Origin: Acidimicrobiia bacterium
GTDB taxonomy: Bacteria; Actinomycetota; Acidimicrobiia; IMCC26256; DASPTH01
Assembly: GCA_040880805.1 (NCBI GenBank)
Contig: JBBDHW010000029.1
Coordinates: 22,381-59,900, forward strand
Length of the DNA: 37,520 bases
Direction: 5' to 3'
In this document: in pieces, positions 5,938-29,825 of the stretch
How positions within the stretch are numbered: the stretch's first letter is position 1
How the letters are laid out: every line of letters starts with the position of its first letter
The notes under the pieces: model-generated
What the model was told of the DNA's origin: nothing
What the model saw: the letters and a program-made list of their open reading frames with translations, nothing else
Database searches by the model: none
Position numbers and translations under genes: made by a program

Positions 5938-7122
5938 TCAATCGCGACCGAGGATCGAAACGAAGCTCACCATCTCGCCGGGGTAGCCGCCGAGGTTGTG
6001 GGTGAGGGCGAGCGACTTTTCGCTGTCGACCGTGCGCTCGGTTGGCGCCTCGCCGCGGAGTTGGAGCCACGCCTCGAACATCATGCGCAGGCCCGACGCG
6101 CCCACCGGGTGTCCGAACGACTTCAACCCGCCGTCGGGGTTGACGGGCAACTCGCCGTCGAGGTCGAACACGCCGTCGATCTCGTCGCGCCACGCCGCGC
6201 CGCGCTCGGAGAACCCGAGGTCCTCCATGAGCACGAGCTCGGTGATCGTGAAGCAGTCGTGCACTTCGGCGAGCGCGAGCTCGCGACGCGGATCGGTGAC
6301 GCCGGCCTGCGCGTAAGCATCGCGCGCGGTAGCCGCGACCTCGGGGAACGTCGTGTAGTCGTAGTCGGGGTCGGTGAGACCGCTCCCGTTGCCCGCCACG
6401 AACGACAGCGCCTTCACGAACAGTGGCTTGTCGGTGTAACGGTGAGCGTCTTCGGCGCGGCACACGATCGCGGCAGCTGCGCCGTCGGCCACACCGGCGC
6501 AGTCGAACACACCAAGCGTGCCGGCGACCTTGGGCGACGCGCAGATGGTCTCCATCGACACCTCACGCCGGAACTGCGCGCGCGTGTTGCGCGCGCCGTT
6601 GTAGTGATTCTTGTACGCGACGTGTGCCATCGACTCGCGCAGCTTGTCGGGGTCGACGCCGAACTTGTCGGCGTACGCGGGTGCGACCATCGAGAACATC
6701 GCCGCCGCCGTGAGCGTGCGCAGCGTGCCGTCGTTCGGCGGGTTCACCGCCGCCAGGCCCTGGTAGCCCGAGTCCTTTGTCTTCTCCACACCGATCGCCA
6801 TCGCCACGTCGTACGCGCCTGACGCCACCGCGTACGAAGCTTGCCGGAACGCCTCGGCGCCCGTAGCGCAGTAGTTCTCGACACGCGTGACGGGCTTGTG
6901 CTCGAGCTGGAGCGGCCGGGCGAGCGTGATGCCGCTCATCCCGCCCTGCGCGGTGCCGAGCCAGTAGGCATCGACGGCGGCCTTGTCGACTCCCGCGGAG
7001 GTGTACGCCTCGTTGGCGGCGTCGATGAGGAGGTCGTCGAGGCCGAGGTCCCAGTGCTCGACGAAGCGCGTGCATCCCATGCCGACGACCGCGACGCGGT
7101 CTTTGATCCCGTGACTAGCCAT
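5938..7122 (-). CDS. SCP2/Ltp2-type thiolase
   Basis: This is a thiolase-superfamily protein (394 aa) of the SCP-x/acetyl-CoA acetyltransferase-like group. Such enzymes cleave beta-ketoacyl-CoA with CoA, or act as retro-aldolases (Ltp2) in steroid side-chain removal. Seen: a nucleophile-type Cys85 in ENYCATGAEAF, EVHDCFT with His289, and GHPVGASG with His338, so the canonical residues are present. The start at 7122 is chosen because the preceding OB-fold gene ends at 7115, giving an 8-base overlap and translational coupling. Pairing with an OB-fold partner is the known arrangement for Ltp2/DUF35 complexes. The exact reaction (thiolysis or aldol cleavage) is uncertain. Confidence 0.85.
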   Translation of the reverse strand: MASHGIKDRVAVVGMGCTRFVEHWDLGLDDLLIDAANEAYTSAGVDKAAVDAYWLGTAQGGMSGITLARPLQLEHKPVTRVENYCATGAEAFRQASYAVASGAYDVAMAIGVEKTKDSGYQGLAAVNPPNDGTLRTLTAAAMFSMVAPAYADKFGVDPDKLRESMAHVAYKNHYNGARNTRAQFRREVSMETICASPKVAGTLGVFDCAGVADGAAAAIVCRAEDAHRYTDKPLFVKALSFVAGNGSGLTDPDYDYTTFPEVAATARDAYAQAGVTDPRRELALAEVHDCFTITELVLMEDLGFSERGAAWRDEIDGVFDLDGELPVNPDGGLKSFGHPVGASGLRMMFEAWLQLRGEAPTERTVDSEKSLALTHNLGGYPGEMVSFVSILGRD

Positions 7123-8515
7123 CTCGAACCAGCCTGCCTTTCCAGAAGTAGTTCGCGATGCCATCCGCCGTGAACAACCGGCGGAACGTCATCTCGACCC
7201 GCATGCCGATCGCGACTTCGCTCTCGTCGACGTCGGTGAGCTCGACCGGGAGCCGGCCACCGCCGTCGAAGTCGACGACGGCGAATACGATCGGAGGGCT
7301 CGGCGAGTACGCGAGGCGGTCCACGGTGAACGTGGCGATGGTGCCCTGCTTGTCGGCGAGGGGCGCCGGATCCATGTTGTCGGTGTGCTCGCCGTCACGC
7401 GACACGCGCGCCGGGGGCACGTGCACCACGCCCGTGTCGCGTTCTTTCGAGCCGACGAACGCGAACTTCCAGTCTTCGTTTCGCGCGGCAGCGGTGGCCG
7501 ACACACGTTGTGGCTCGGCGCGGCGCGGCGGCTCCACCGGCAACACGCCCTTCCACGCCAGGAACTTGCCGTACGGGAGCGCGCCACCCGCCGCAACTTG
7601 CGTCGCGATCGTGCGCGCCGGACGGTGGCGCGCAATGGCGTCGGTCGCGCGGAACAACAGCACGTCGGCGCCGTCGGCCGCGCTCACCAACGCGACGACC
7701 TGACCCGGTTCGGCCTGTTCGAGCAGCGCGACGAGGAGCAGGCCCGGGTGCGCGGCACCAGCGATACCGACGGTTGACGAGAGGTCGTCGATCACCTGCA
7801 CGCCGTCGAGCTTGCCGCCGGCGCTGCGCGCAACACGCTGCACGGGCGCGGCGACCGCGGCGAGCGCAATATCACCGGCGGTGAGCCCGGCCGACTCGAG
7901 CGCCGCGTTCCACGCGTCGACGGCCAGCGGAACCGAAGCGACCTCGCTGAACCGCTCGTCCCACACCTTCGTGCGCAACTCGCCGGGCGTGCGCCAGCGC
8001 TCGACGTATTCGTCGGTGACGCTCGCGCTCCCGAGGAACTCGGCAACGACCGCCGTGTCGTGGTCGCTGCCGACCAGGAACGCCGCGGCTGCGTCACCTT
8101 GCATCGCCTCCTCGGTGCTGCCCGCGAGGCCGGTCCGCACGTCGGCGCTGACCACCAGCGCGGGTTTCGACCCGCCGAGCGTGAGGAGTAGGGCGCCGAC
8201 CGCCGAGCGCGGCGACAGCCCGACGTCGAACGCGGCGGTGGTGGACGGCAACCGCAGCGCGGCCTGCACGCCCGTCGCGTTGGTCTTGTCGGCATAGGCG
8301 GGCGTGGTGGAACCGAACAGGATCTGCGCGGGTATGACGTCGGTTGCGCGCCGCGCAAGTCGAGCCGCTTCCACGGCCATCGTGGTGGAGTCTTCGTCGT
8401 AGCTCGCGACGGTGCGGGTGCCCTTCCCGCCGCCTTGCCCGACGAATGGCGCGATCTCTCCGCGGTCGAGGCGTCGATACGGCAGGTACGCAGCCCACGA
8501 AATGATCCCGCGCAT
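7115..8515 (-). CDS. HMG-CoA synthase-like/OB-fold (DUF35) fusion protein
   Basis: This is a two-part protein (466 aa). Residues 1-~300 have a thiolase-like/HMG-CoA synthase fold: MRGIISWAAYLPYRRL start, GSTTPAYADKTNATG, FDVGLSPRSAVGALLL, DAAAAFLVGS. The position of the synthase nucleophilic Cys reads Ser/Pro (GLSPRS), so this half looks non-catalytic. Residues ~320-466 resemble the DUF35 OB fold that binds acyl-CoA in partner complexes. The zinc-ribbon knuckle just before it (around VGSKERDTGVVHVPPARV) has no cysteines. The gene overlaps the thiolase start by 8 bases, so a complex with that thiolase is likely. A leaderless-type -10 lies directly upstream. Confidence 0.75.
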   Translation of the reverse strand: MRGIISWAAYLPYRRLDRGEIAPFVGQGGGKGTRTVASYDEDSTTMAVEAARLARRATDVIPAQILFGSTTPAYADKTNATGVQAALRLPSTTAAFDVGLSPRSAVGALLLTLGGSKPALVVSADVRTGLAGSTEEAMQGDAAAAFLVGSDHDTAVVAEFLGSASVTDEYVERWRTPGELRTKVWDERFSEVASVPLAVDAWNAALESAGLTAGDIALAAVAAPVQRVARSAGGKLDGVQVIDDLSSTVGIAGAAHPGLLLVALLEQAEPGQVVALVSAADGADVLLFRATDAIARHRPARTIATQVAAGGALPYGKFLAWKGVLPVEPPRRAEPQRVSATAAARNEDWKFAFVGSKERDTGVVHVPPARVSRDGEHTDNMDPAPLADKQGTIATFTVDRLAYSPSPPIVFAVVDFDGGGRLPVELTDVDESEVAIGMRVEMTFRRLFTADGIANYFWKGRLVRDG

Positions 8516-9939: not shown

Positions 9940-9981
9940 CACCACCCCATTCGTCTCCGGAGATGCTGTCACACCGCCGGG

Positions 9982-9987
9982 TAGTGT
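9982..9987 (+). promoter_or_regulatory. Leaderless-type -10 box for CoA-transferase operon
   Basis: TAGTGT lies seven bases before the GTG at 9995, with no Shine-Dalgarno sequence between them. It matches the boxes at 3482 and 27572 in form and spacing. It supports GTG 9995 over upstream in-frame starts inside the divergent SDR. Confidence 0.5.
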
Positions 9988-9994
9988 CCACCCC

Positions 9995-11254
9995 GTGAAG
10001 TTGGGTGACGTTGTCAACGCGCAGGCCGCGGCCAACGGCAAGCCGCTCGACGGCGTGCGCGTGCTCGCACTCGAGCAGATGCAAGCGCTCCCCTACGCCA
10101 CGCAGTTGCTCACGCGCCTCGGGGCCGAGGTGATCAAGATCGAGCCGCCCACGGGTGAGTCGGGCCGAGGCTCGCTGCCGGGGATGCAGGATCCGTACGG
10201 CCGTCTCGTCGGCGCCACCTTCCTCCGCAACAACCTCAGCAAGCGCAGCGTCGCGATCGACCTCAAGAATCCAGCCGGTCGCGACCTCGTGCTCCGGATG
10301 GCGCCGCGCTTCGACGTGGTCGCCGAGAACTTCAAGCCCGGCACCGCGCACCGCCTCGGGCTCGGCTACGCCGACGTCGCCGCCGCGCACCCCACGGTCA
10401 TCTACGTGTCGGTCTCGGGGGCGGGCAACCTCGTGGAGTCGCCGTACGCGGAGTGGCCGGCCTATGCGTCGATGGCCGAAGCCGTGTCGGGGATCTACGA
10501 GTACACGCGCCCGGCCGGTCAACGTCCGCGCGCGAACCCGGTCGGCGCACTCGGTGACATCAGCTCTGCGCTCTTCGCCGTGATCGGCACGCTCGCGGCG
10601 TTGCGCCACCGCGACACGCGCGGCATCGGGCAGCACGTCGACATCTCGATGTTCGACGCGACCGCGGCCATGACCGACATCGTCACCAACCTCGGTTCGC
10701 TCGGCATGGAGCATCTCCACGACTCGAAGGCGCTCGTGCTCGACACCTTCCAGGCCACCGACGGCTTCTTCGTGCTGCAACTCGTCCGCGAGCACCAACT
10801 CGAGCGGCTGGCTCACCTTGTCGGTCACCCGGAATGGCTCAGCGATCCACGCCTTGCCACGCGTGAGCAGTGGGGTGAGCACGTCGAAGACATCTTCCGG
10901 CCTGCGATCGAGACATGGGCGGCAGGGCTCACGAAGCTGGAAGCCACCCACGCGTTCAGCGATGCGGGCATCGCCGCAAGCCCGTGCCAATCGTCCGCCG
11001 AGGTGCGGGTCGACCCTCACCTCACCGCTCGCAACATGCTCGTCGAGATGGAACGCACCGACGGCGTCGCGCAACCGGTGCTGATCCCCGGCAACCCGGT
11101 GAAGCTCTCGGCGGTCGCGGAGGGGCCCGAGACGCGCGTCCCCTGGGTCGGTGAGCACACCTTCGAGGTGCTCCACGAGGAGCTCGGCCTCGACGACGAC
11201 GAGCTCGCCCGGCTGGCGAAGGACGGCGCGATCACCGGCCTTCCCGCCGAGTAG
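9995..11254 (+). CDS. Class III CoA-transferase (CaiB/BaiF family)
   Basis: This is a family III CoA-transferase (419 aa), which moves CoA between carboxylic acids through an aspartyl-CoA anhydride. Seen: the N-terminal Rossmann-like block GVRVLALEQMQALPYATQLLTRLG, VIKIEPPTGESGRG, FLRNNLSKRSVAIDL, DVVAENFKPGTAHRLG, and the catalytic region PVGALGDISSALF, where Asp188 fits the nucleophile. The GTG start is chosen because the conserved block starts ~20 residues later and a leaderless -10 precedes it. It begins a three-gene run with the sulfotransferase and the DUF1214 protein. It may activate a steroid acid or a small acid; the substrate is unknown. Confidence 0.85.
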   Translation: MKLGDVVNAQAAANGKPLDGVRVLALEQMQALPYATQLLTRLGAEVIKIEPPTGESGRGSLPGMQDPYGRLVGATFLRNNLSKRSVAIDLKNPAGRDLVLRMAPRFDVVAENFKPGTAHRLGLGYADVAAAHPTVIYVSVSGAGNLVESPYAEWPAYASMAEAVSGIYEYTRPAGQRPRANPVGALGDISSALFAVIGTLAALRHRDTRGIGQHVDISMFDATAAMTDIVTNLGSLGMEHLHDSKALVLDTFQATDGFFVLQLVREHQLERLAHLVGHPEWLSDPRLATREQWGEHVEDIFRPAIETWAAGLTKLEATHAFSDAGIAASPCQSSAEVRVDPHLTARNMLVEMERTDGVAQPVLIPGNPVKLSAVAEGPETRVPWVGEHTFEVLHEELGLDDDELARLAKDGAITGLPAE

Positions 11255-23646: not shown

Positions 23647-24108
23647 TCAGAGCACCCAGCGGGAGAGCGACTCGATCACGCACGCGGGCTTCTCCGAGCC
23701 CTCGACCTCCATCGTGATCTGCATTCGGGTCTGGAGGCCGCCGGAGACCTCGGTGACCTCGAGCAGCTCGACCCCGGCGCGGACACGCGCGCCCACCGGC
23801 ACCGGCGCCGGGAAGCGCACTCGGTCGACTCCGTAGTTGATGCCCATCTGGAAGCCGTCCACGGTGACGACGGTGGGCACGAGCATGTTCGACAGCGCCA
23901 TCGTGAGATAGCCGTGCGCGATGGGCCCGCCGTAGGGCGATTCCTTCGTCGCGCGTTCGACGTCGACGTGGATCCACTGGAAGTCGCCGGTGGCCTCGGC
24001 GAACAGGTTCACTCGATCCTGTGTGACCTCGAGCCACTCGCTGTACCCGAAATGGCGTCCGACTGCCACGCTCACCTCGTCGACGCCGTTCAGCACGACG
24101 GTCGTCAC
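23647..24108 (-). CDS. MaoC-like enoyl-CoA hydratase
   Basis: This is a single-domain MaoC hydratase (153 aa). Seen: EATGDFQWIHVDVERA (38-53), which keeps the D-x4-H pair Asp42/His47 in a form close to the R-specific enoyl-CoA hydratase motif, then YGGPIAHGYLTMALSNML and the strands GINYGVDRVRFPAPVPVGARVR. Unlike the 16147/16704 pair, it carries full catalytic residues and should work as a homodimer. The GTG start overlaps the ipdC stop (GTGA), making it the last gene of the echA20-ipdABC operon. It may hydrate an enoyl-CoA produced after ring opening; this is inference. Confidence 0.85.
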   Translation of the reverse strand: MTTVVLNGVDEVSVAVGRHFGYSEWLEVTQDRVNLFAEATGDFQWIHVDVERATKESPYGGPIAHGYLTMALSNMLVPTVVTVDGFQMGINYGVDRVRFPAPVPVGARVRAGVELLEVTEVSGGLQTRMQITMEVEGSEKPACVIESLSRWVL

Positions 24109-25172
24109 GTCGCCCCCAGGTCCTTCAACACTTCGTCGGCCTGTGCGACGATTCGGTCGATCAGCTCTTTGCAGGTGGGCAGGTCGTCGATCACGCCCAC
24201 CACCTGTCCGCTCGCCATCACACCGGATTCGACCTTGCCGTCGACGAGCGCGGCCTTCAGCAGCATCGGCGTGTTCGCGGCCATGAGCGTCTGGGTCCAC
24301 GTGAGGCCCATCGACTTCCGCATCGCCAGCCCCTCGTGGATCATGTCGCGCAGCGGGATGCCCGTCATGCGGCGAAACGCCCACGCGTTGCGAAGCGCGC
24401 GCGGGAATGCCCAGACGCGCCCACGCGTCGACTCGAGGTCGTCGACGAGGTCGGTGTGCAACACGCGGTGCGGTACGCCGTCGACCTGCGTGGTGACCAC
24501 GGTCTCGGTGACGGCCTTGCCGAGGTAGAACTGCTTCACCGAGTCGGGCACCGCGGAGTCGGCCGTGAGCAGGAACCGCGTGCCCATCGCGATGCCGTCG
24601 GCGCCGTAGGCGAGCGCGGCGACCAGCCCGCGGCCGTCGAAGAAGCCGCCGGCCGCGATCACGGGGATCGCACCCTGCACCGCGTCCACCACCTGCGGGA
24701 GCAGGAGGCTCGTGGGCACGGACCCGGTGTGGCCGCCGCCCTCGCCTCCCTGCACGAGCACCGCGTCGACACCCCACCCGAGCACCTTCTCGGCGTGACG
24801 CTTGGCGCCGATCGACGGCACCACGAGCACGCCGCCGTCGTGCAGGGCGGCGATCAGGTCCTCACGCGGCGCCTGGGCGAAGCTCGCCACCTTCACGCCC
24901 TCGTTGATCAGCAGCTTGACGCGGTCGTTGACATCGGCGGCGTCGGCGCGCAGGTTCACGCCGAAGGGGCGGGGGGTGCGCGTCTTGACGTCGGCGATCG
25001 CGTTCTGGAGCTGACGGAAGTCCATGGTTGCGCTGGCGAGAATGCCGAGCGCACCGGCCTCGGCGGTGGCCGACACGAGACGCGGACCGGCAACCCAGCC
25101 CATGCCGGTCTGGACGATCGGCACGTCGATGCCGAAGAGATCGCACAGGCGCGTGTGCAGGCGCGCGTGCAT
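24105..25172 (-). CDS. ipdC: IpdC-like flavin-dependent oxidoreductase
   Basis: This is a 2-nitropropane dioxygenase/nitronate monooxygenase-fold flavoprotein (355 aa). Seen: N-terminal GIDVPIVQTGMGWVAGPRL, the FMN phosphate loop VLVQGGEGGGHTG, VIAAGGFFDGRG, and GADGIAMGTRFL. In cholesterol degraders the family member directly after ipdAB is IpdC, which acts on the bicyclic ring C/D CoA thioester before EchA20 opens ring D. The assignment rests on family plus the conserved echA20-ipdA-ipdB-ipdC order. Its start overlaps the ipdB stop (TGATG), and its stop overlaps the maoC start. A second family member lies at 34580. Confidence 0.85.
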   Translation of the reverse strand: MHARLHTRLCDLFGIDVPIVQTGMGWVAGPRLVSATAEAGALGILASATMDFRQLQNAIADVKTRTPRPFGVNLRADAADVNDRVKLLINEGVKVASFAQAPREDLIAALHDGGVLVVPSIGAKRHAEKVLGWGVDAVLVQGGEGGGHTGSVPTSLLLPQVVDAVQGAIPVIAAGGFFDGRGLVAALAYGADGIAMGTRFLLTADSAVPDSVKQFYLGKAVTETVVTTQVDGVPHRVLHTDLVDDLESTRGRVWAFPRALRNAWAFRRMTGIPLRDMIHEGLAMRKSMGLTWTQTLMAANTPMLLKAALVDGKVESGVMASGQVVGVIDDLPTCKELIDRIVAQADEVLKDLGAT

Positions 25173-25936
25173 CAGTTCGGGAGCTCGTGGAGGCGGAGCC
25201 CGGTGGGGTCGACCTGCTCGATCACCACGAGCTCCTCGTCGGTGGGCACACGGCTCTCGGGTACTTCGCCGTCGATGGCGAGCTCGAACCCGGTCGCTTC
25301 GACCACTTCGTCGACCGTCACGCCGGGATGCAGGCTCGCGAGGCGCATGCGGTGGTCGGGCGTCGCAAAGTCGAGGACCGCGAGGTTGGTGACGACGCGC
25401 CGGATCTCGTGGTGGGCGCGCACCCAGTCACCGAGCTTGGCGGCGCGGTCGTACCCCACTCCTGACACAACGTCGACCTTGGGCACGAACACGCGTGTCG
25501 TGTGGTTCGGGATCCAGTAGCTCGTGGTGTGGTTCACGGTGTTGCCGGGAGCGCCGCGCATACCGAGGAGCTGACTCTTCGGATGCCCCCATTCGCCGAT
25601 GAACGCGAAGTTCTGGTTCCCGTACCGGTCCATCTGCGAGGCGCCCATCACCACGTGGCGGCGCCCGGACCACACCACGTCGAACATCGTGCGGTACGGG
25701 TTCCACGCTTCGACGACCTTCTCCGCGTCGTCGACCCCGATGGGCATCGGGTTGGCGACGAGCAGCGCGAAGCCATCGGTCATCACGAGGTCGGGCTCGA
25801 ACACGACCCGGGCGACGCGACCACCGATCATCGGGATGTTGCCGATCGGGTTCGCCATGATCTCGCCGTCGCCGCGGAACGTGTCGGCGATCGCCACCAC
25901 ACAGATGTCGGCGCGGGGGATGCCTGCGTCGGTCAC
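25172..25936 (-). CDS. ipdB: IpdB, beta subunit of ring-C-opening CoA-transferase-like hydrolase
   Basis: This is a class I CoA-transferase beta-subunit fold (254 aa). With IpdA it forms the hydrolase that opens the last steroid ring (COCHEA-CoA) in actinobacteria. Seen: DTFRGDGEIMANPIGNIPMIGGRVAR at the N-terminus, SGRRHVVMGASQMDRYGNQNFAFIG, GAPGNTVNHTTSYWIPNH, TNLAVLDFATPDHRMRLASLHPG. These differ from glutaconate/acetate CoA-transferases, which supports the IpdB branch. The GTG start at 25936 is chosen because it overlaps the ipdA stop (GTGA); longer frames upstream are antisense to ipdA. It overlaps the ipdC start by one base. Confidence 0.9.
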   Translation of the reverse strand: MTDAGIPRADICVVAIADTFRGDGEIMANPIGNIPMIGGRVARVVFEPDLVMTDGFALLVANPMPIGVDDAEKVVEAWNPYRTMFDVVWSGRRHVVMGASQMDRYGNQNFAFIGEWGHPKSQLLGMRGAPGNTVNHTTSYWIPNHTTRVFVPKVDVVSGVGYDRAAKLGDWVRAHHEIRRVVTNLAVLDFATPDHRMRLASLHPGVTVDEVVEATGFELAIDGEVPESRVPTDEELVVIEQVDPTGLRLHELPN

Positions 25937-26781
25937 AGCCCGACCACCTTCCGGTACTCGGCGTGGTTGCCGCAGTCGAGGTACTTCGCCGTCCACGCGC
26001 TCCACGCGTCGGCATCTCGGGCCGTGAGCGCGTACTCGCGCTGGAACGCCTCGTCGCGCTCGTAGTCGGGGACGCACTCGGTGAAGTGCGCACCGTGCGC
26101 TGCCTCTACGACTCCGTGGGTCATCAGCCGGTTGATCTTGAGCGTTTGGATCGGGCCGTTCGACGCGAGCTCGTCGGTGGGCACGACGCGCTCGACGCTC
26201 ATGAACGCGCGCGGCGCGGCCATGCAGAACAGGTCGTCGAAGTAAGGGTCGACGTTCAGGTACTGCCCGTTGCCGCGCGCGTCGCCGCGGTGCATGTGCA
26301 CGAGGGCGACGTCGAGGTTGAGTGCGGGCGCGGCGACCAGCTCCTCGCGATCGTCGTACGGTGAGATGACAGTGCGGATCTCGTCTTGGCGGGCGACCAC
26401 GTCGGAGCCGAGACCGACCCTCGTGGGAAGGAACGGCACCCGCCACGCGGCGGCTTGCAGGCCGAGGAGGAACATGCCCTCATCGAGCTCGAGCGTGGTG
26501 ACCGCGCCGGCTTCACGCGCTTTGCGGAAGTGCGGCTCCAGCGCGATCGAGTCGAGCGAGCAGAACGAGTACACGACCTTCTTCGCCTTGCCCGTCGCGC
26601 AGAGCAACCCAACATCGGGACCGCCGTAGCTCACGATGGTGAGATCGCGGAGGTCGGAGCGCGCGATGGCGCGCACGATGCTCATCGGCTTGCGCCGCGA
26701 TCCCCAGCCGCCGATGCCGATCGTCATGCCGTCGCGCAGCTCGGCGACCACGTCTTCTTCGGTGATGCGTTTGTCGGTCAT
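25933..26781 (-). CDS. ipdA: IpdA, alpha subunit of ring-C-opening CoA-transferase-like hydrolase
   Basis: This is the alpha subunit (282 aa) of IpdAB. Seen: MTIGIGGWGSRRKPMSIVRAI (residues 19-39), VSYGGPDVGLLCATGKAKKV, TTLELDEGMFLLGLQAAAWR with Glu101 of DEGM, VDPYFDDLFCMAAPRAFMSVE, and AAHGAHFTECVPDYERDE. These closely follow the M. tuberculosis IpdA sequence as I remember it. Glu101 sits where the essential Glu105 of characterised IpdA is expected. The enzyme hydrolyses a C-C bond of the ring C diketone CoA thioester instead of transferring CoA. ATG 26781 follows the echA20 stop by 16 bases. Confidence 0.92.
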   Translation of the reverse strand: MTDKRITEEDVVAELRDGMTIGIGGWGSRRKPMSIVRAIARSDLRDLTIVSYGGPDVGLLCATGKAKKVVYSFCSLDSIALEPHFRKAREAGAVTTLELDEGMFLLGLQAAAWRVPFLPTRVGLGSDVVARQDEIRTVISPYDDREELVAAPALNLDVALVHMHRGDARGNGQYLNVDPYFDDLFCMAAPRAFMSVERVVPTDELASNGPIQTLKINRLMTHGVVEAAHGAHFTECVPDYERDEAFQREYALTARDADAWSAWTAKYLDCGNHAEYRKVVGL

Positions 26782-26797
26782 CGCAAGTTGGACGTGC

Positions 26798-27559
26798 CTA
26801 ATCGGAAGTATCGGCGTCGCGGCCTTCGACGAACGCGTCGCGCAGCTCGTCGGACACACCTGACAGGTTGAGCTCGAAGGTGAAGCCCTGCTCGAAGCGG
26901 TACGAGCGTTTCACGTCCCACAGATCGATCCCGTTGAGACTCTCCTTCGCCGCCCGGATGACCCTGGGCGACTTCTCCGCGATGCTCTCGGCCACCTCCA
27001 ACGCGGCGGCGCGCAGCTCGCCGCGCGACACGACTTTCAGCACGGAGCCGAACGCGTGGAGCTCGGCTGCGGTGGCGGTGGCGCTCGTGTAGACCATCGC
27101 CCGCATCTTGTGCTGGGGAACGAGGCGTGAGAGGTGCGTGGCGGCCCCAAGGGCGCCGCGGTCGACCTCGGGGAGGCCGAAGTAGGCGTCGTCGCTGGCG
27201 ACGATCACGTCGGCGTTGCCCACGAGGCCGATACCGCCGCCGACGCAGAAGCCGTGGACAGCTGCGATCACGGGGACCGGGCAGTCGTACACCGCGGCGA
27301 AGGCGGCGAAACAGCCCTTGTTGGCTCCGATCAGGGCGTCGAAGCCCTCGGAGTTCTGCATCTCCTTGATATCGACGCCGGCGTTGAACCCGCGGCCTTC
27401 GGCGCGCAACACGACGACGCGCACGGCGCGATCGGCACCCAACTCGTTGAGGACGCGGGCGAGGTCGAACCAGCCGTCGACCGTGAGCGCGTTGACGGGC
27501 GGCGCGTCGACGATCACCTCGGCGATTCCCCGCTCGTCGACGTGCGAAGTGATCCCCAC
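26798..27559 (-). CDS. echA20: EchA20, ring-D-opening crotonase
   Basis: This is a crotonase-fold CoA hydrolase (253 aa). In cholesterol degraders EchA20 hydrolytically opens ring D of HIEC-CoA. Seen: LRAEGRGFNAGVDIKEMQ (51-68), with Asn in place of the usual Cys/Ser of the oxyanion loop, FCVGGGIGLVGNADVIVA (104-121), and YFGLPEVDRGALGAATHLSRLVP. The NAGVD and GGGIGLVGN forms match the M. tuberculosis protein as remembered. The GTG start at 27559 is chosen over an upstream ATG that would overlap the divergent HAD gene. It heads the echA20-ipdA-ipdB-ipdC-maoC operon, with a -10 box eight bases before the start. Confidence 0.9.
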   Translation of the reverse strand: MGITSHVDERGIAEVIVDAPPVNALTVDGWFDLARVLNELGADRAVRVVVLRAEGRGFNAGVDIKEMQNSEGFDALIGANKGCFAAFAAVYDCPVPVIAAVHGFCVGGGIGLVGNADVIVASDDAYFGLPEVDRGALGAATHLSRLVPQHKMRAMVYTSATATAAELHAFGSVLKVVSRGELRAAALEVAESIAEKSPRVIRAAKESLNGIDLWDVKRSYRFEQGFTFELNLSGVSDELRDAFVEGRDADTSD

Positions 27560-27567
27560 GAGGCGGC

Positions 27568-27577
27568 AGCGTAGTGT
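27568..27577. promoter_or_regulatory. Overlapping divergent -10 boxes (echA20 / HAD gene)
   Basis: In the 28-base gap between start codons, the minus strand has TACGCT (27573-27568) eight bases before the echA20 GTG. The plus strand has TAGTGT (27572-27577) ten bases before the HAD ATG. The two boxes share two bases, so polymerase cannot sit on both at once. No CAAG-nn-CTTG palindrome of KstR2 type is seen here. Confidence 0.45.
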
Positions 27578-27587
27578 GCTGTCCCGC

Positions 27588-28232
27588 ATGACGATCGAAG
27601 CGGTGCTGTGGGATTACGGCGGCGTGTTCACGCCGTCGCCGTTCGGGGCCGCTACTGCGTACGCGCACGCGGTCGGCGCCGAGCCTGCCGTCCTGCTGGA
27701 AGTGGTGTTCGGCTCGTACGACACCGACGGCGACCACGTGTGGCACCGGCTCGAGCGCGGCGAGGTGCCGTTCACCGAAGCTCTCGCGGAGATCGCGGTA
27801 GCGGCCGAGGCAGCGGGTTTCCGTTTCGAGGCGCGGGAGATGTTCGCCGCGATGCGTTCCGACGAGATCGACCGCACCATCGTCGTCGACTCCGTACGCG
27901 CGGTCCGGGCGCGCGGTCTGCGCACCGGGATCGTCACGAACAACATCCGTGAGTACGGCGATTCGTGGCGTGGTCAGCTCCCGATCGACGAGCTGTTCGA
28001 CACGGTCGTCGACTCGTCACACGAAGGCGTGCGCAAGCCGAATCCAGTGATCTACCACACCGCCCTCGAACGCCTCGGCGTAACCCACCCGTCGCACGCG
28101 GTGTTCCTCGACGACTTCGAAGCGAACGTGGTCGCGGCGCGCAACCTCGGTCTGCACGGCATCGTCGTCGACGAGGATCCGCGCGCCGCGATCGATGCGC
28201 TCGACGCCCTGCTCGACCGCGAGCTCGGTTAG
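27588..28232 (+). CDS. HAD-superfamily hydrolase
   Basis: This is a HAD-type phosphatase/hydrolase fold (214 aa). Seen: motif I as WDYGGVF (residues 8-14), as in the epoxide-hydrolase-N-domain-like subgroup; the nucleophile Asp is present but the second Asp is Gly. Motif II is GIVTNNIREY, motif III has the Lys of EGVRKPNP, and motif IV is VFLDDFEANVVAARNLG. The helical cap between motifs I and II holds EVPFTEALAEIAV. The substrate is unknown. It is divergent from echA20 across an overlapping promoter, so the two could be reciprocally expressed. Confidence 0.85.
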   Translation: MTIEAVLWDYGGVFTPSPFGAATAYAHAVGAEPAVLLEVVFGSYDTDGDHVWHRLERGEVPFTEALAEIAVAAEAAGFRFEAREMFAAMRSDEIDRTIVVDSVRAVRARGLRTGIVTNNIREYGDSWRGQLPIDELFDTVVDSSHEGVRKPNPVIYHTALERLGVTHPSHAVFLDDFEANVVAARNLGLHGIVVDEDPRAAIDALDALLDRELG

Positions 28233-28557: not shown

Positions 28558-29825
28558 AGGGCTCACGCCGGATCTGATTGAGCGTTGATGGTGTAGTTCC
28601 ATTCGCCGTGCCAGTCGTGGGGGTCGAGCGGCACGGCCGCGAGGTGGCCGTCGCTGATCTTGACGCCGGTCGGGTACCAGTTGGGGTCGTAAGCGGCTTG
28701 GATCGTGAGCCCGGTGGCGGTGGCGGTGGCGGAGATGAGCTCGACGATGGTGCGCAGGCTGGTGAGGGGCCGGCCGCGCCAGTTGATGGTGATGAAGCTG
28801 AACATGCGGTGTTCGATCTTGTTCCACTTGCTGGTGCCGGGCGGGTAGTGGCACACGGTGATGCGCAGACCGGTCTCGGCCGCGAGTGCGGCGAGGTGAA
28901 CTTTCCAGGCTCGGAGCCGGTATCCGTTAGAGCTGCCAGCATCCGCGGTGATCAACAGCCGGTCGGCGTCGGGGAAGCGTGCCCGGCCCATCTGGTTCCA
29001 CCAGCGTCGAATGGACTCGACTGCGAACTCGGCGGTGTCAGCGACGTCACCGACACTGACCCAGCCTTCGTCGTTGGCCACGTCGTAGATTCCATAGGGG
29101 ATGGCCTTCGCGTACTCGCCCAGTGCGCGATCGGCGAAGTCGTGCACGTTCACGCGCGTCGGTTTGCCCTCCGGTGCCCACTCGGTGCCGCCGTTGGCGT
29201 AGTCACCGATCAGCTCCTTCTTCTTCGTGTCCACGCTGATCGCCGGTTGGCCGTCATCGATGAACGCGGCGGCCATGTCGTTGAGATACCGGAACTGGGC
29301 GTCCCGGTCGGGATGCTGACGTCCCTCGGTCACCTTGGCGTTGGCCTGCAACGAGTAGCCGAGTAGATGCAGCAAGCGAAGCACCGTGCGCGACGACACC
29401 TCGAAGCCTTGACGCACCAGATCCTCGGCCAGCTTCGTCGAGGACTTCGACGTCCAGCGCAGCAACGACATCGGGTTGCCACGCGTCTCGGGATGCACCA
29501 GCTCGTCGAGTGCCTCGAGCAAACCGGGTTGCTTGTCGATCAACGGCTTGTCGCCACCGCCCGCTGCTCGCAGACGCGCCGGCCGTTCGATCCCGGCCGC
29601 GACTTCCGCCTCGGCCTTGATCACCGTGTTGCGGCTCATACCCGACGCCGTCGCCACCGCTGTCTTGGCGCCTCGGCCCAGCATCTCCGACGCGGCACCC
29701 GCGACAACACGCCGCTGCACCTCGTTCATGTGCGGCAGAACCACGTCGAAGAACCGCGCGAGCGCCTCCGGCGTGACCTCCACACCACAAAGATACTACG
29801 CGCGTATTATCCTGGCGTGGACCCT
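28558..29825 (-). mobile_element. ISAzo13-family insertion sequence
   Basis: This is a compact element of about 1268 bases with one transposase gene. The ends are imperfect inverted repeats: left inward GGGGCTCACGCCGGAT (from 28558) and right inward AGGGTCCACGCCAGGAT (from 29825). Both are flanked by TA (28556-28557 and 29826-29827), a possible target duplication. The transposase stop codon lies inside the left repeat. The intact reading frame and recognisable ends suggest a recent arrival. Confidence 0.75.
28563..29783 (-). CDS. ISAzo13-type DDE transposase
   Basis: This is a complete 406-aa transposase. Seen: an N-terminal helix-turn-helix region (ASGMSRNTVIKAEAEV, 46-61), SLLRWTSKSSTKLAEDL, and the RNase-H-like catalytic core with ISVDTKKKE (Asp185), LITADAGSSNG (Asp281) and SKWNKIEHRMFSF (Glu324), the DDE triad. 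GYSLQANAKVTEGRQHPDRDAQF before the first Asp is typical of the ISAzo13 group. The start is a GTG just inside the right inverted repeat. No frameshift is seen, so it is probably functional. Confidence 0.92.
   Translation of the reverse strand: MEVTPEALARFFDVVLPHMNEVQRRVVAGAASEMLGRGAKTAVATASGMSRNTVIKAEAEVAAGIERPARLRAAGGGDKPLIDKQPGLLEALDELVHPETRGNPMSLLRWTSKSSTKLAEDLVRQGFEVSSRTVLRLLHLLGYSLQANAKVTEGRQHPDRDAQFRYLNDMAAAFIDDGQPAISVDTKKKELIGDYANGGTEWAPEGKPTRVNVHDFADRALGEYAKAIPYGIYDVANDEGWVSVGDVADTAEFAVESIRRWWNQMGRARFPDADRLLITADAGSSNGYRLRAWKVHLAALAAETGLRITVCHYPPGTSKWNKIEHRMFSFITINWRGRPLTSLRTIVELISATATATGLTIQAAYDPNWYPTGVKISDGHLAAVPLDPHDWHGEWNYTINAQSDPA

What the first reader, a model, noticed from the sequence alone, without database searches (positions are those of the whole stretch)
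7115..8515. HMG-CoA-synthase-like/OB-fold fusion without catalytic Cys and without zinc-ribbon cysteines
The synthase-like half has Ser/Pro at the nucleophile position, and the DUF35 knuckle has none of the usual four cysteines. The protein thus looks like a pure acyl-CoA-binding scaffold for the coupled thiolase, in contrast to the small separate DUF35 proteins or ChsH2 fusions that partner Ltp2.
Basis: partly seen in the sequence, partly recalled or inferred. Interest (0 to 1): 0.55.

Follow-up and report, generated by a model that had tools for sequence, protein, structure and literature searches.

The report
Zinc-free dead-synthase scaffold for a thiolase
This gene makes a one-piece helper protein, built from a synthase that has lost its catalytic residues and a small domain that has lost its usual zinc site; it sits next to an active thiolase and probably holds that thiolase and its substrate in a complex.

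Summary
The 466-aa gene at 7115-8515(-) is an HMG-CoA-synthase-like half (best fold match 6esq_I, Z 43.6) fused to a DUF35/OB domain. All three HMGS catalytic positions are lost (Cys->Pro102, Glu->Thr70, His->Ala223), as are all four zinc-ribbon cysteines (Glu358, Thr361, Ser372, Gly375). Of 160 relatives only one, a separate archaeal HMGS, has the nucleophile. Inert HMGS-like partners are already published (PhlA), so that half is not new. The zinc loss is: 57 of 97 tree rows lack the cysteines, are compatible with one clade (AU p 0.87), and mostly keep the loop as D-x2-[ST]...S-x2-G; sisters, including a paralogue in this genome, keep C4. 159 of 160 have a thiolase just downstream; in 94 paired thiolases the catalytic Cys is invariant. 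Best reading: a single-chain, metal-free version of the PhlA+PhlB scaffold serving a catalytic thiolase, near a conserved CaiB CoA-transferase and, in this genome, steroid-ring-degradation-like genes. CoA binding and contact with the thiolase remain untested.

The parts
7115..8515 (-). fusion gene: HMGS-like + DUF35/OB, 466 aa
7538..8515 (-). HMG-CoA-synthase-like half, residues 1-326
   Evidence: 6esq_I Z 43.6, rmsd 1.9, 325 aligned; NF003274 109.7 bits, below cut-off 244
8210..8212 (-). Pro102, at the HMGS nucleophile (Cys) column
8306..8308 (-). Thr70, at the HMGS catalytic Glu column
7847..7849 (-). Ala223, at the HMGS catalytic His column
7361..7456 (-). former zinc knuckle, residues 354-385; ligand columns E358, T361, S372, G375 hold no Cys; two-strand loop kept in the model
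7124..7354 (-). OB-fold domain (OB_ChsH2_C), residues 388-464
5938..7122 (-). partner thiolase, 394 aa, PRK06157 family (596 bits, cut-off 403); Cys85, His288 and His338 present
9980..11254 (+). divergent family III CoA-transferase (CaiB), conserved neighbour of the zinc-less clade

Best explanation
The protein is the non-catalytic subunit of a thiolase complex. Its N-terminal half keeps the HMG-CoA-synthase fold but has lost the Cys/Glu/His catalytic set; it serves as a platform and probably lines the shared CoA/acyl cavity. Its C-terminal DUF35 part grips the thiolase, and the thiolase (Cys85, His288, His338) does all the chemistry, cleaving or forming a 3-oxoacyl-CoA. So it does in one chain what PhlA and PhlB do in two. 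In this clade the DUF35 ribbon no longer uses zinc: the turn is kept by a conserved D-x2-[ST]-G-x2-H-L-P-P-x-R-V-S-x2-G sequence instead. Shown: residue losses, clade-wide conservation, gene adjacency, covariation with the thiolase, fold. Inferred: physical complex, cavity sharing, metal-free state, substrate (bulky acyl-CoAs, possibly from steroid rings).
For: Losses at all three catalytic columns and in all four ligand columns. Best fold matches are 6esq_I/6et9_I, CsATase (9skh), PhlA (5m3k/5mg5) and MucABC (9vbo) subunits, Z 38-44. Model pLDDT 90.5, pTM 0.92; the 10-residue blocks of the knuckle score 88-92. Thiolase downstream on the same strand in 159 of 160. Fusion and thiolase distances correlate, r 0.91 against a permutation maximum of 0.39, n=94; the zinc label needs only 2 changes on the thiolase tree. 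Thiolase Cys and HDCF His in 94 of 94, GHP His in 93 of 94 with one gap. Zinc-less rows as one clade: lnL 35.3 higher than the free quick tree, p-AU 0.87. In the 45 of 57 zinc-less rows with all four ligand columns filled: D/E at 358 in 45, S/T at 361 in 44, S at 372 in 42, G at 375 in 44. PhlA lacks Cys and Glu, and only PhlC does the chemistry (PMC6392133).
Against: No complex prediction and no coordinates of 6ESQ were available, so contact is not shown. PhlACB lacks CoA-binding residues, so the CoA-platform role may not carry over. Within the 56 zinc-less pairs the distance correlation is only 0.53. The free trees do not make all zinc-less rows one clade: L055 and L092 fall outside and 3 changes are needed, although the constrained tree is better. 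Operon neighbours share ancestry, so correlated trees do not prove contact.
Confidence: 0.75

Rival explanations
1. The HMGS-like half still catalyses something with other residues, for example by Ser101 or by acid-base chemistry in the old cavity.
For: Ser101 lies next to the nucleophile column. Twenty-two mycobacterial-type zinc-bearing relatives of 160 have a Cys three columns upstream of it.
Against: The nucleophile column varies freely (L, V, A, G, I, T, P, M) and Glu and His are replaced in all but L139. Window Ser101 is not conserved: clade members mostly have Gly or Ala there. PhlA with the same losses is not the acyl-transfer subunit (PMC6392133).
Confidence: 0.08
2. The knuckle still binds a metal with other ligands (Asp358, His365 or others).
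For: D358 (44 of 45, E in the window) and H365 (42 of 45) are highly conserved in full-knuckle zinc-less rows. CtShy shows that DUF35 zinc ligands can change (C3H1; PMC12329534 passages).
Against: H365 is nearly as common in zinc-bearing rows (31 of 40), so it is no replacement ligand; columns 372 and 375 became Ser and Gly; 12 of 57 zinc-less rows lack some ligand columns altogether.
Confidence: 0.12
3. A narrower form of the best explanation: the fusion/thiolase pair is specifically the thiolase of steroid C/D-ring breakdown, acting after IpdAB in place of FadA6.
For: The window holds EchA20-like (PRK07938, 431.5 bits, cut-off 260), IpdA/IpdC-like and SDR genes 15-25 kb away. In L188 the same genes lie 4-8 kb from the fusion, and L072 has an EchA20 homologue at 4 kb. 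PMC5380842 says the thiolase of this step is not certain (passages).
Against: Co-occurrence with EchA20 is weak: 40 of 46 genomes with the fusion against 9 of 15 without, p 0.055. The association with CaiB is far stronger (36 of 46 against 1 of 15). The own genome has canonical thiolases too, one on the same contig.
Confidence: 0.3
4. Sequencing or assembly artefact, or a decaying pseudogene.
For: Several relatives are fragments or frame-broken copies.
Against: Open frame, relatives at about 50-64% identity with the same losses in dozens of genomes and a conserved operon.
Confidence: 0.01

Closest known systems
PhlACB / PpATase Friedel-Crafts acylase (PDB 5M3K/5MG5) and relatives CsATase (9SKH) and MucABC (9VBO)
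   Same: PhlA: HMGS-like subunit with Cys and Glu lost, encoded with a DUF35 subunit and a catalytic thiolase subunit (PMC6392133); fold Z 38-42 for the three complexes
   Different: separate PhlA and PhlB genes; PhlB keeps the C4 zinc site; CoA-independent acyl transfer on phenols
[quoted passage not shown]
   Same: same three folds; HMGS chain is the top fold match and thiolase chain the second-best sequence match of the partner
   Different: its HMGS is catalytic (Cys114, Glu82); DUF35 is a separate zinc protein; mevalonate pathway
ChsH2-Ltp2 and Shy-Sal steroid side-chain complexes
   Same: DUF35 domain on a partner protein holds a thiolase-superfamily enzyme (PMC12329534, PMC11321319, passages)
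   Different: partner is a MaoC hydratase; zinc is C4 or C3H1; enzyme is an aldolase
Zinc-bearing HMGS-like/DUF35 fusions of Mycolicibacterium, Conexibacter, Nocardioides and the own-genome C40 paralogue
   Same: same fusion, same kind of thiolase partner, no HMGS nucleophile
   Different: four cysteines intact; about 40-50% identical

Membership tests
HMG-CoA synthase (enzyme) | nucleophilic Cys | tested here: not met
   Pro102 in that column
HMG-CoA synthase (enzyme) | catalytic Glu and His | tested here: not met
   Thr70 and Ala223
HMG-CoA synthase (enzyme) | curated model score over cut-off | tested here: not met
   NF003274 109.7 of 244 bits; TIGR00748 67.9 of 353.35
HMG-CoA synthase fold | thiolase-superfamily fold of archaeal HMGS | tested here: met
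   6esq_I Z 43.6, rmsd 1.9, 325 aligned
DUF35 / OB_ChsH2_C | OB-fold domain | tested here: met
   PF01796 53.3 bits, cut-off 27.1
DUF35 / OB_ChsH2_C | N-terminal rubredoxin-like ribbon with Cys4 zinc site | tested here: not met
   0 of 4 Cys; strand-loop-strand kept in the model
PhlACB-type acyltransferase scaffold | inactive HMGS-like subunit encoded with DUF35 and thiolase | tested here: met
PhlACB-type acyltransferase scaffold | physical three-component complex | not testable with these tools
   no complex prediction available
PhlACB-type acyltransferase scaffold | CoA-independent phenol C-acylation | not testable with these tools
   needs an assay; CoA-pathway neighbours make it unlikely (inference)
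PRK06157 thiolase (partner) | equivalog score; thiolase Cys and His residues | tested here: met
   596 bits against 403; Cys in 94 of 94 pairs

The most novel reading that the evidence does not exclude
A whole lineage of DUF35 proteins has replaced the zinc ribbon, present in all DUF35 structures named in the papers read, by a metal-free hydrogen-bonded turn. In the fused form, dead synthase and metal-free DUF35 together with PRK06157 thiolases make a new two-gene acyl-CoA machine that handles bulky (steroid-ring) 3-oxoacyl-CoAs in actinobacteria, mostly of Acidimicrobiia type.
Probability: 0.25. Interest if true: 0.6.

Novelty: new variant of a known kind. Interest (0 to 1): 0.42.

Why it matters
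DUF35 domains are the grip by which several thiolase-like enzymes are assembled, and a 2019 paper states that every structurally characterised DUF35 protein binds zinc (PMC6996347, passage). A conserved zinc-free clade, with a zinc-bearing sister group and even a zinc-bearing paralogue in the same genome, is a natural experiment for asking what the zinc is for. The single-chain arrangement also gives a simple two-gene system for testing what a dead HMGS-like subunit contributes to thiolase catalysis.

Tried and rejected
Strict steroid co-occurrence: tested with EchA20; only weak (p 0.055). ACAD1 co-occurrence was weaker than CaiB's. The presence/absence sets were entered by hand; they count 46 genomes with a close fusion (E better than 1e-60, including G031 and G059, whose copies are zinc-bearing, and fragmentary copies) and ignore genome incompleteness.

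Uniqueness of zinc loss: rejected. Of 22 DUF35 domains in the own genome, 16 have an in-frame four-Cys ribbon. Of the other six, three keep 3 of 4 Cys, two have none (the window's and the first of a tandem pair at C48:67154-67348), and one (C12:38941) has a frame that starts too late to tell.

Two or more independent zinc losses in the fusion: L055 and L092 fell outside the main zinc-less clade in the quick tree; L139, L177, L062 and the 28-33% class were left out of the 97-row tree, where the constrained single clade scored better. A further AU run there (without L055) did not finish.

Rows dropped: 167 extracted sequences, 7 identical removed, giving 160; 11 short or partial hits were skipped; 112 rows after leaving out 5 rows and thinning at 80% identity, 97 after leaving out distant rows, 94 with a partner thiolase over 300 aa. 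The last two rows printed (NLGG motif) are not valid, because the reference thiolase row was cut at the locus end; they are not used. Checkpoint note 2 gives '158 of 159' for the downstream thiolase; the script's own count is 159, with L139 alone without, so 159 of 160.

Thiolase positions that differ between zinc-less and zinc-bearing partners (115, 121, 140 and others) could mark the DUF35 contact, but shared ancestry explains them equally well.

Literature: no paper on this fusion or on zinc-free DUF35 domains was found in searches of the held library (open-licence PMC only). The PNAS paper on the archaeal complex is not held; it is known here only through passages of other papers. 9vbo was not found in text; the search on MucABC was seen as a listing only. 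Papers seen as passages: PMC6392133 (plus its section 6 whole), PMC12329534, PMC10398937, PMC2954200, PMC6996347, PMC5380842, PMC11321319.

Full report
What is there. The gene at 7115-8515(-) encodes 466 aa. The thiolase gene at 5938-7122(-) begins 8 bases inside its end. The N-terminal half matches archaeal HMG-CoA synthase models below their cut-offs; the C-terminal part is an OB_ChsH2_C (DUF35) domain over its cut-off. An AlphaFold2 model from 47 aligned sequences has mean pLDDT 90.5 and pTM 0.92. Against the PDB, the top matches of residues 1-336 are the HMGS subunit of the archaeal thiolase/HMGS/DUF35 complex (6esq_I, Z 43.6, rmsd 1.9, 325 aligned), then CsATase, PhlA and MucABC subunits.

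Catalytic residues. In phmmer alignments to solved chains, the HMGS Cys, Glu and His columns hold Pro102, Thr70 and Ala223. Published analysis of PhlA says the same Cys and Glu are replaced there (Gly115, Cys83), and that only PhlC residues do the acyl transfer (PMC6392133, section 6 and passages). In 160 aligned relatives the Cys column is Cys only in L139, a Thaumarchaeota HMGS that also keeps Glu and His.

Zinc knuckle. In 82 of the 160 the four ribbon cysteines are present and in 78 they are not complete; the 78 include L139, L178 and L179, which show nothing aligned in the ribbon columns and whose matches end before the DUF35 part. The zinc-bearing set includes Mycolicibacterium, Conexibacter and Nocardioides and a paralogue on contig C40 of this same genome (L009). 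The zinc-less set includes the window and its relatives at about 50-64% identity. In the 97-row tree (knuckle columns left out) 57 rows are zinc-less. Holding them as one clade gives a log-likelihood 35.3 higher than the free quick tree, p-AU 0.87, so one loss is compatible with the data and favoured. In the 45 zinc-less rows with all four ligand columns filled, these columns are D (44; E in the window), S/T (44), S (42) and G (44), while the neighbouring G-x2-H-L-P-P-x-R-V pattern is shared with zinc-bearing rows. The other 12 zinc-less rows have lost part or all of the loop. Model strands 354-358 and 381-385 are spaced as 338-342 and 365-369 are in the model of the zinc-bearing M. neoaurum protein, so the loop appears to keep its frame without the metal (inference).

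Partner. A same-strand thiolase lies downstream in 159 of 160, as a rule within tens of bases (in L158 the gap is 909 bases); the exception is L139, with 505 bases of room. In 94 pairs the thiolase Cys and the HDCF His are invariant, and the GHP His is present in 93 with one gap. Pairwise distances of fusion and thiolase correlate at 0.91 (500 permutations, maximum 0.39). Within zinc-less pairs alone the correlation is 0.53 and within zinc-bearing pairs 0.97.

Neighbourhood. The zinc-less clade mostly has a divergent CaiB (56-64% identical) upstream and often two acyl-CoA dehydrogenases; no CaiB over 35% identity is seen in the zinc-bearing loci examined. Across 61 genomes CaiB is found in 36 of 46 with a close fusion and in 1 of 15 without (p 1e-6); EchA20 in 40 of 46 and 9 of 15 (p 0.055) (hand-entered). 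The window also carries EchA20-, IpdA-, IpdC- and SDR-like genes. Their reading as the steroid C/D-ring set follows the gene table of PMC5380842 (passages), not an assay.

Mechanism. Most likely the fusion is a single-chain scaffold, PhlA plus PhlB in one, for a catalytic thiolase. The dead HMGS half holds the complex and may line a shared CoA/acyl cavity; the DUF35 part contacts the thiolase; the ribbon is metal-free. Adjacency, residue losses and folds are shown; contact, metal content and substrate are inferred.

Novelty. The inert HMGS partner is published. One paper states that all structurally characterised DUF35 proteins bind zinc (PMC6996347, passage); later work adds a C3H1 case (PMC12329534, passages). 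A conserved zinc-free fused clade was not found in the literature searched. It is not the only zinc-less DUF35 domain in this genome. Hence: new variant of a known kind.

Noticed in passing
window 24105-27589: EchA20-like (PRK07938 over cut-off), IpdA-like and IpdB-like CoA-transferase and IpdC-like genes in a row: a steroid C/D-ring degradation set, with SDR, TetR and F420 LLM (Rv3520c family) genes further on.
   Followed up: partly
window 9980-11254: Divergent family III CoA-transferase that tracks the fusion across genomes (36 of 46 with, 1 of 15 without).
   Followed up: yes
L222 (G000:C48:66468-68000): Tandem DUF35 protein; its first DUF35 has none of the four cysteines, an apparently separate zinc loss.
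   Followed up: partly
L153 (G178:C1:1364540-1373251): Two zinc-bearing fusion genes, each with its own thiolase, in tandem.
   Followed up: no
L178 and L179: HMGS-like proteins of 329-351 aa without a DUF35 part and without the nucleophile, next to a thiolase: a possible split or pre-fusion form.
   Followed up: no
L161-L176: A distant fusion class (about 27-33% identical) with the C4 site kept, present in many of the same genomes alongside the zinc-less one, also followed by a thiolase.
   Followed up: partly
window 28563-29783: Transposase of the ISAZ013 type among the steroid-like genes.
   Followed up: no
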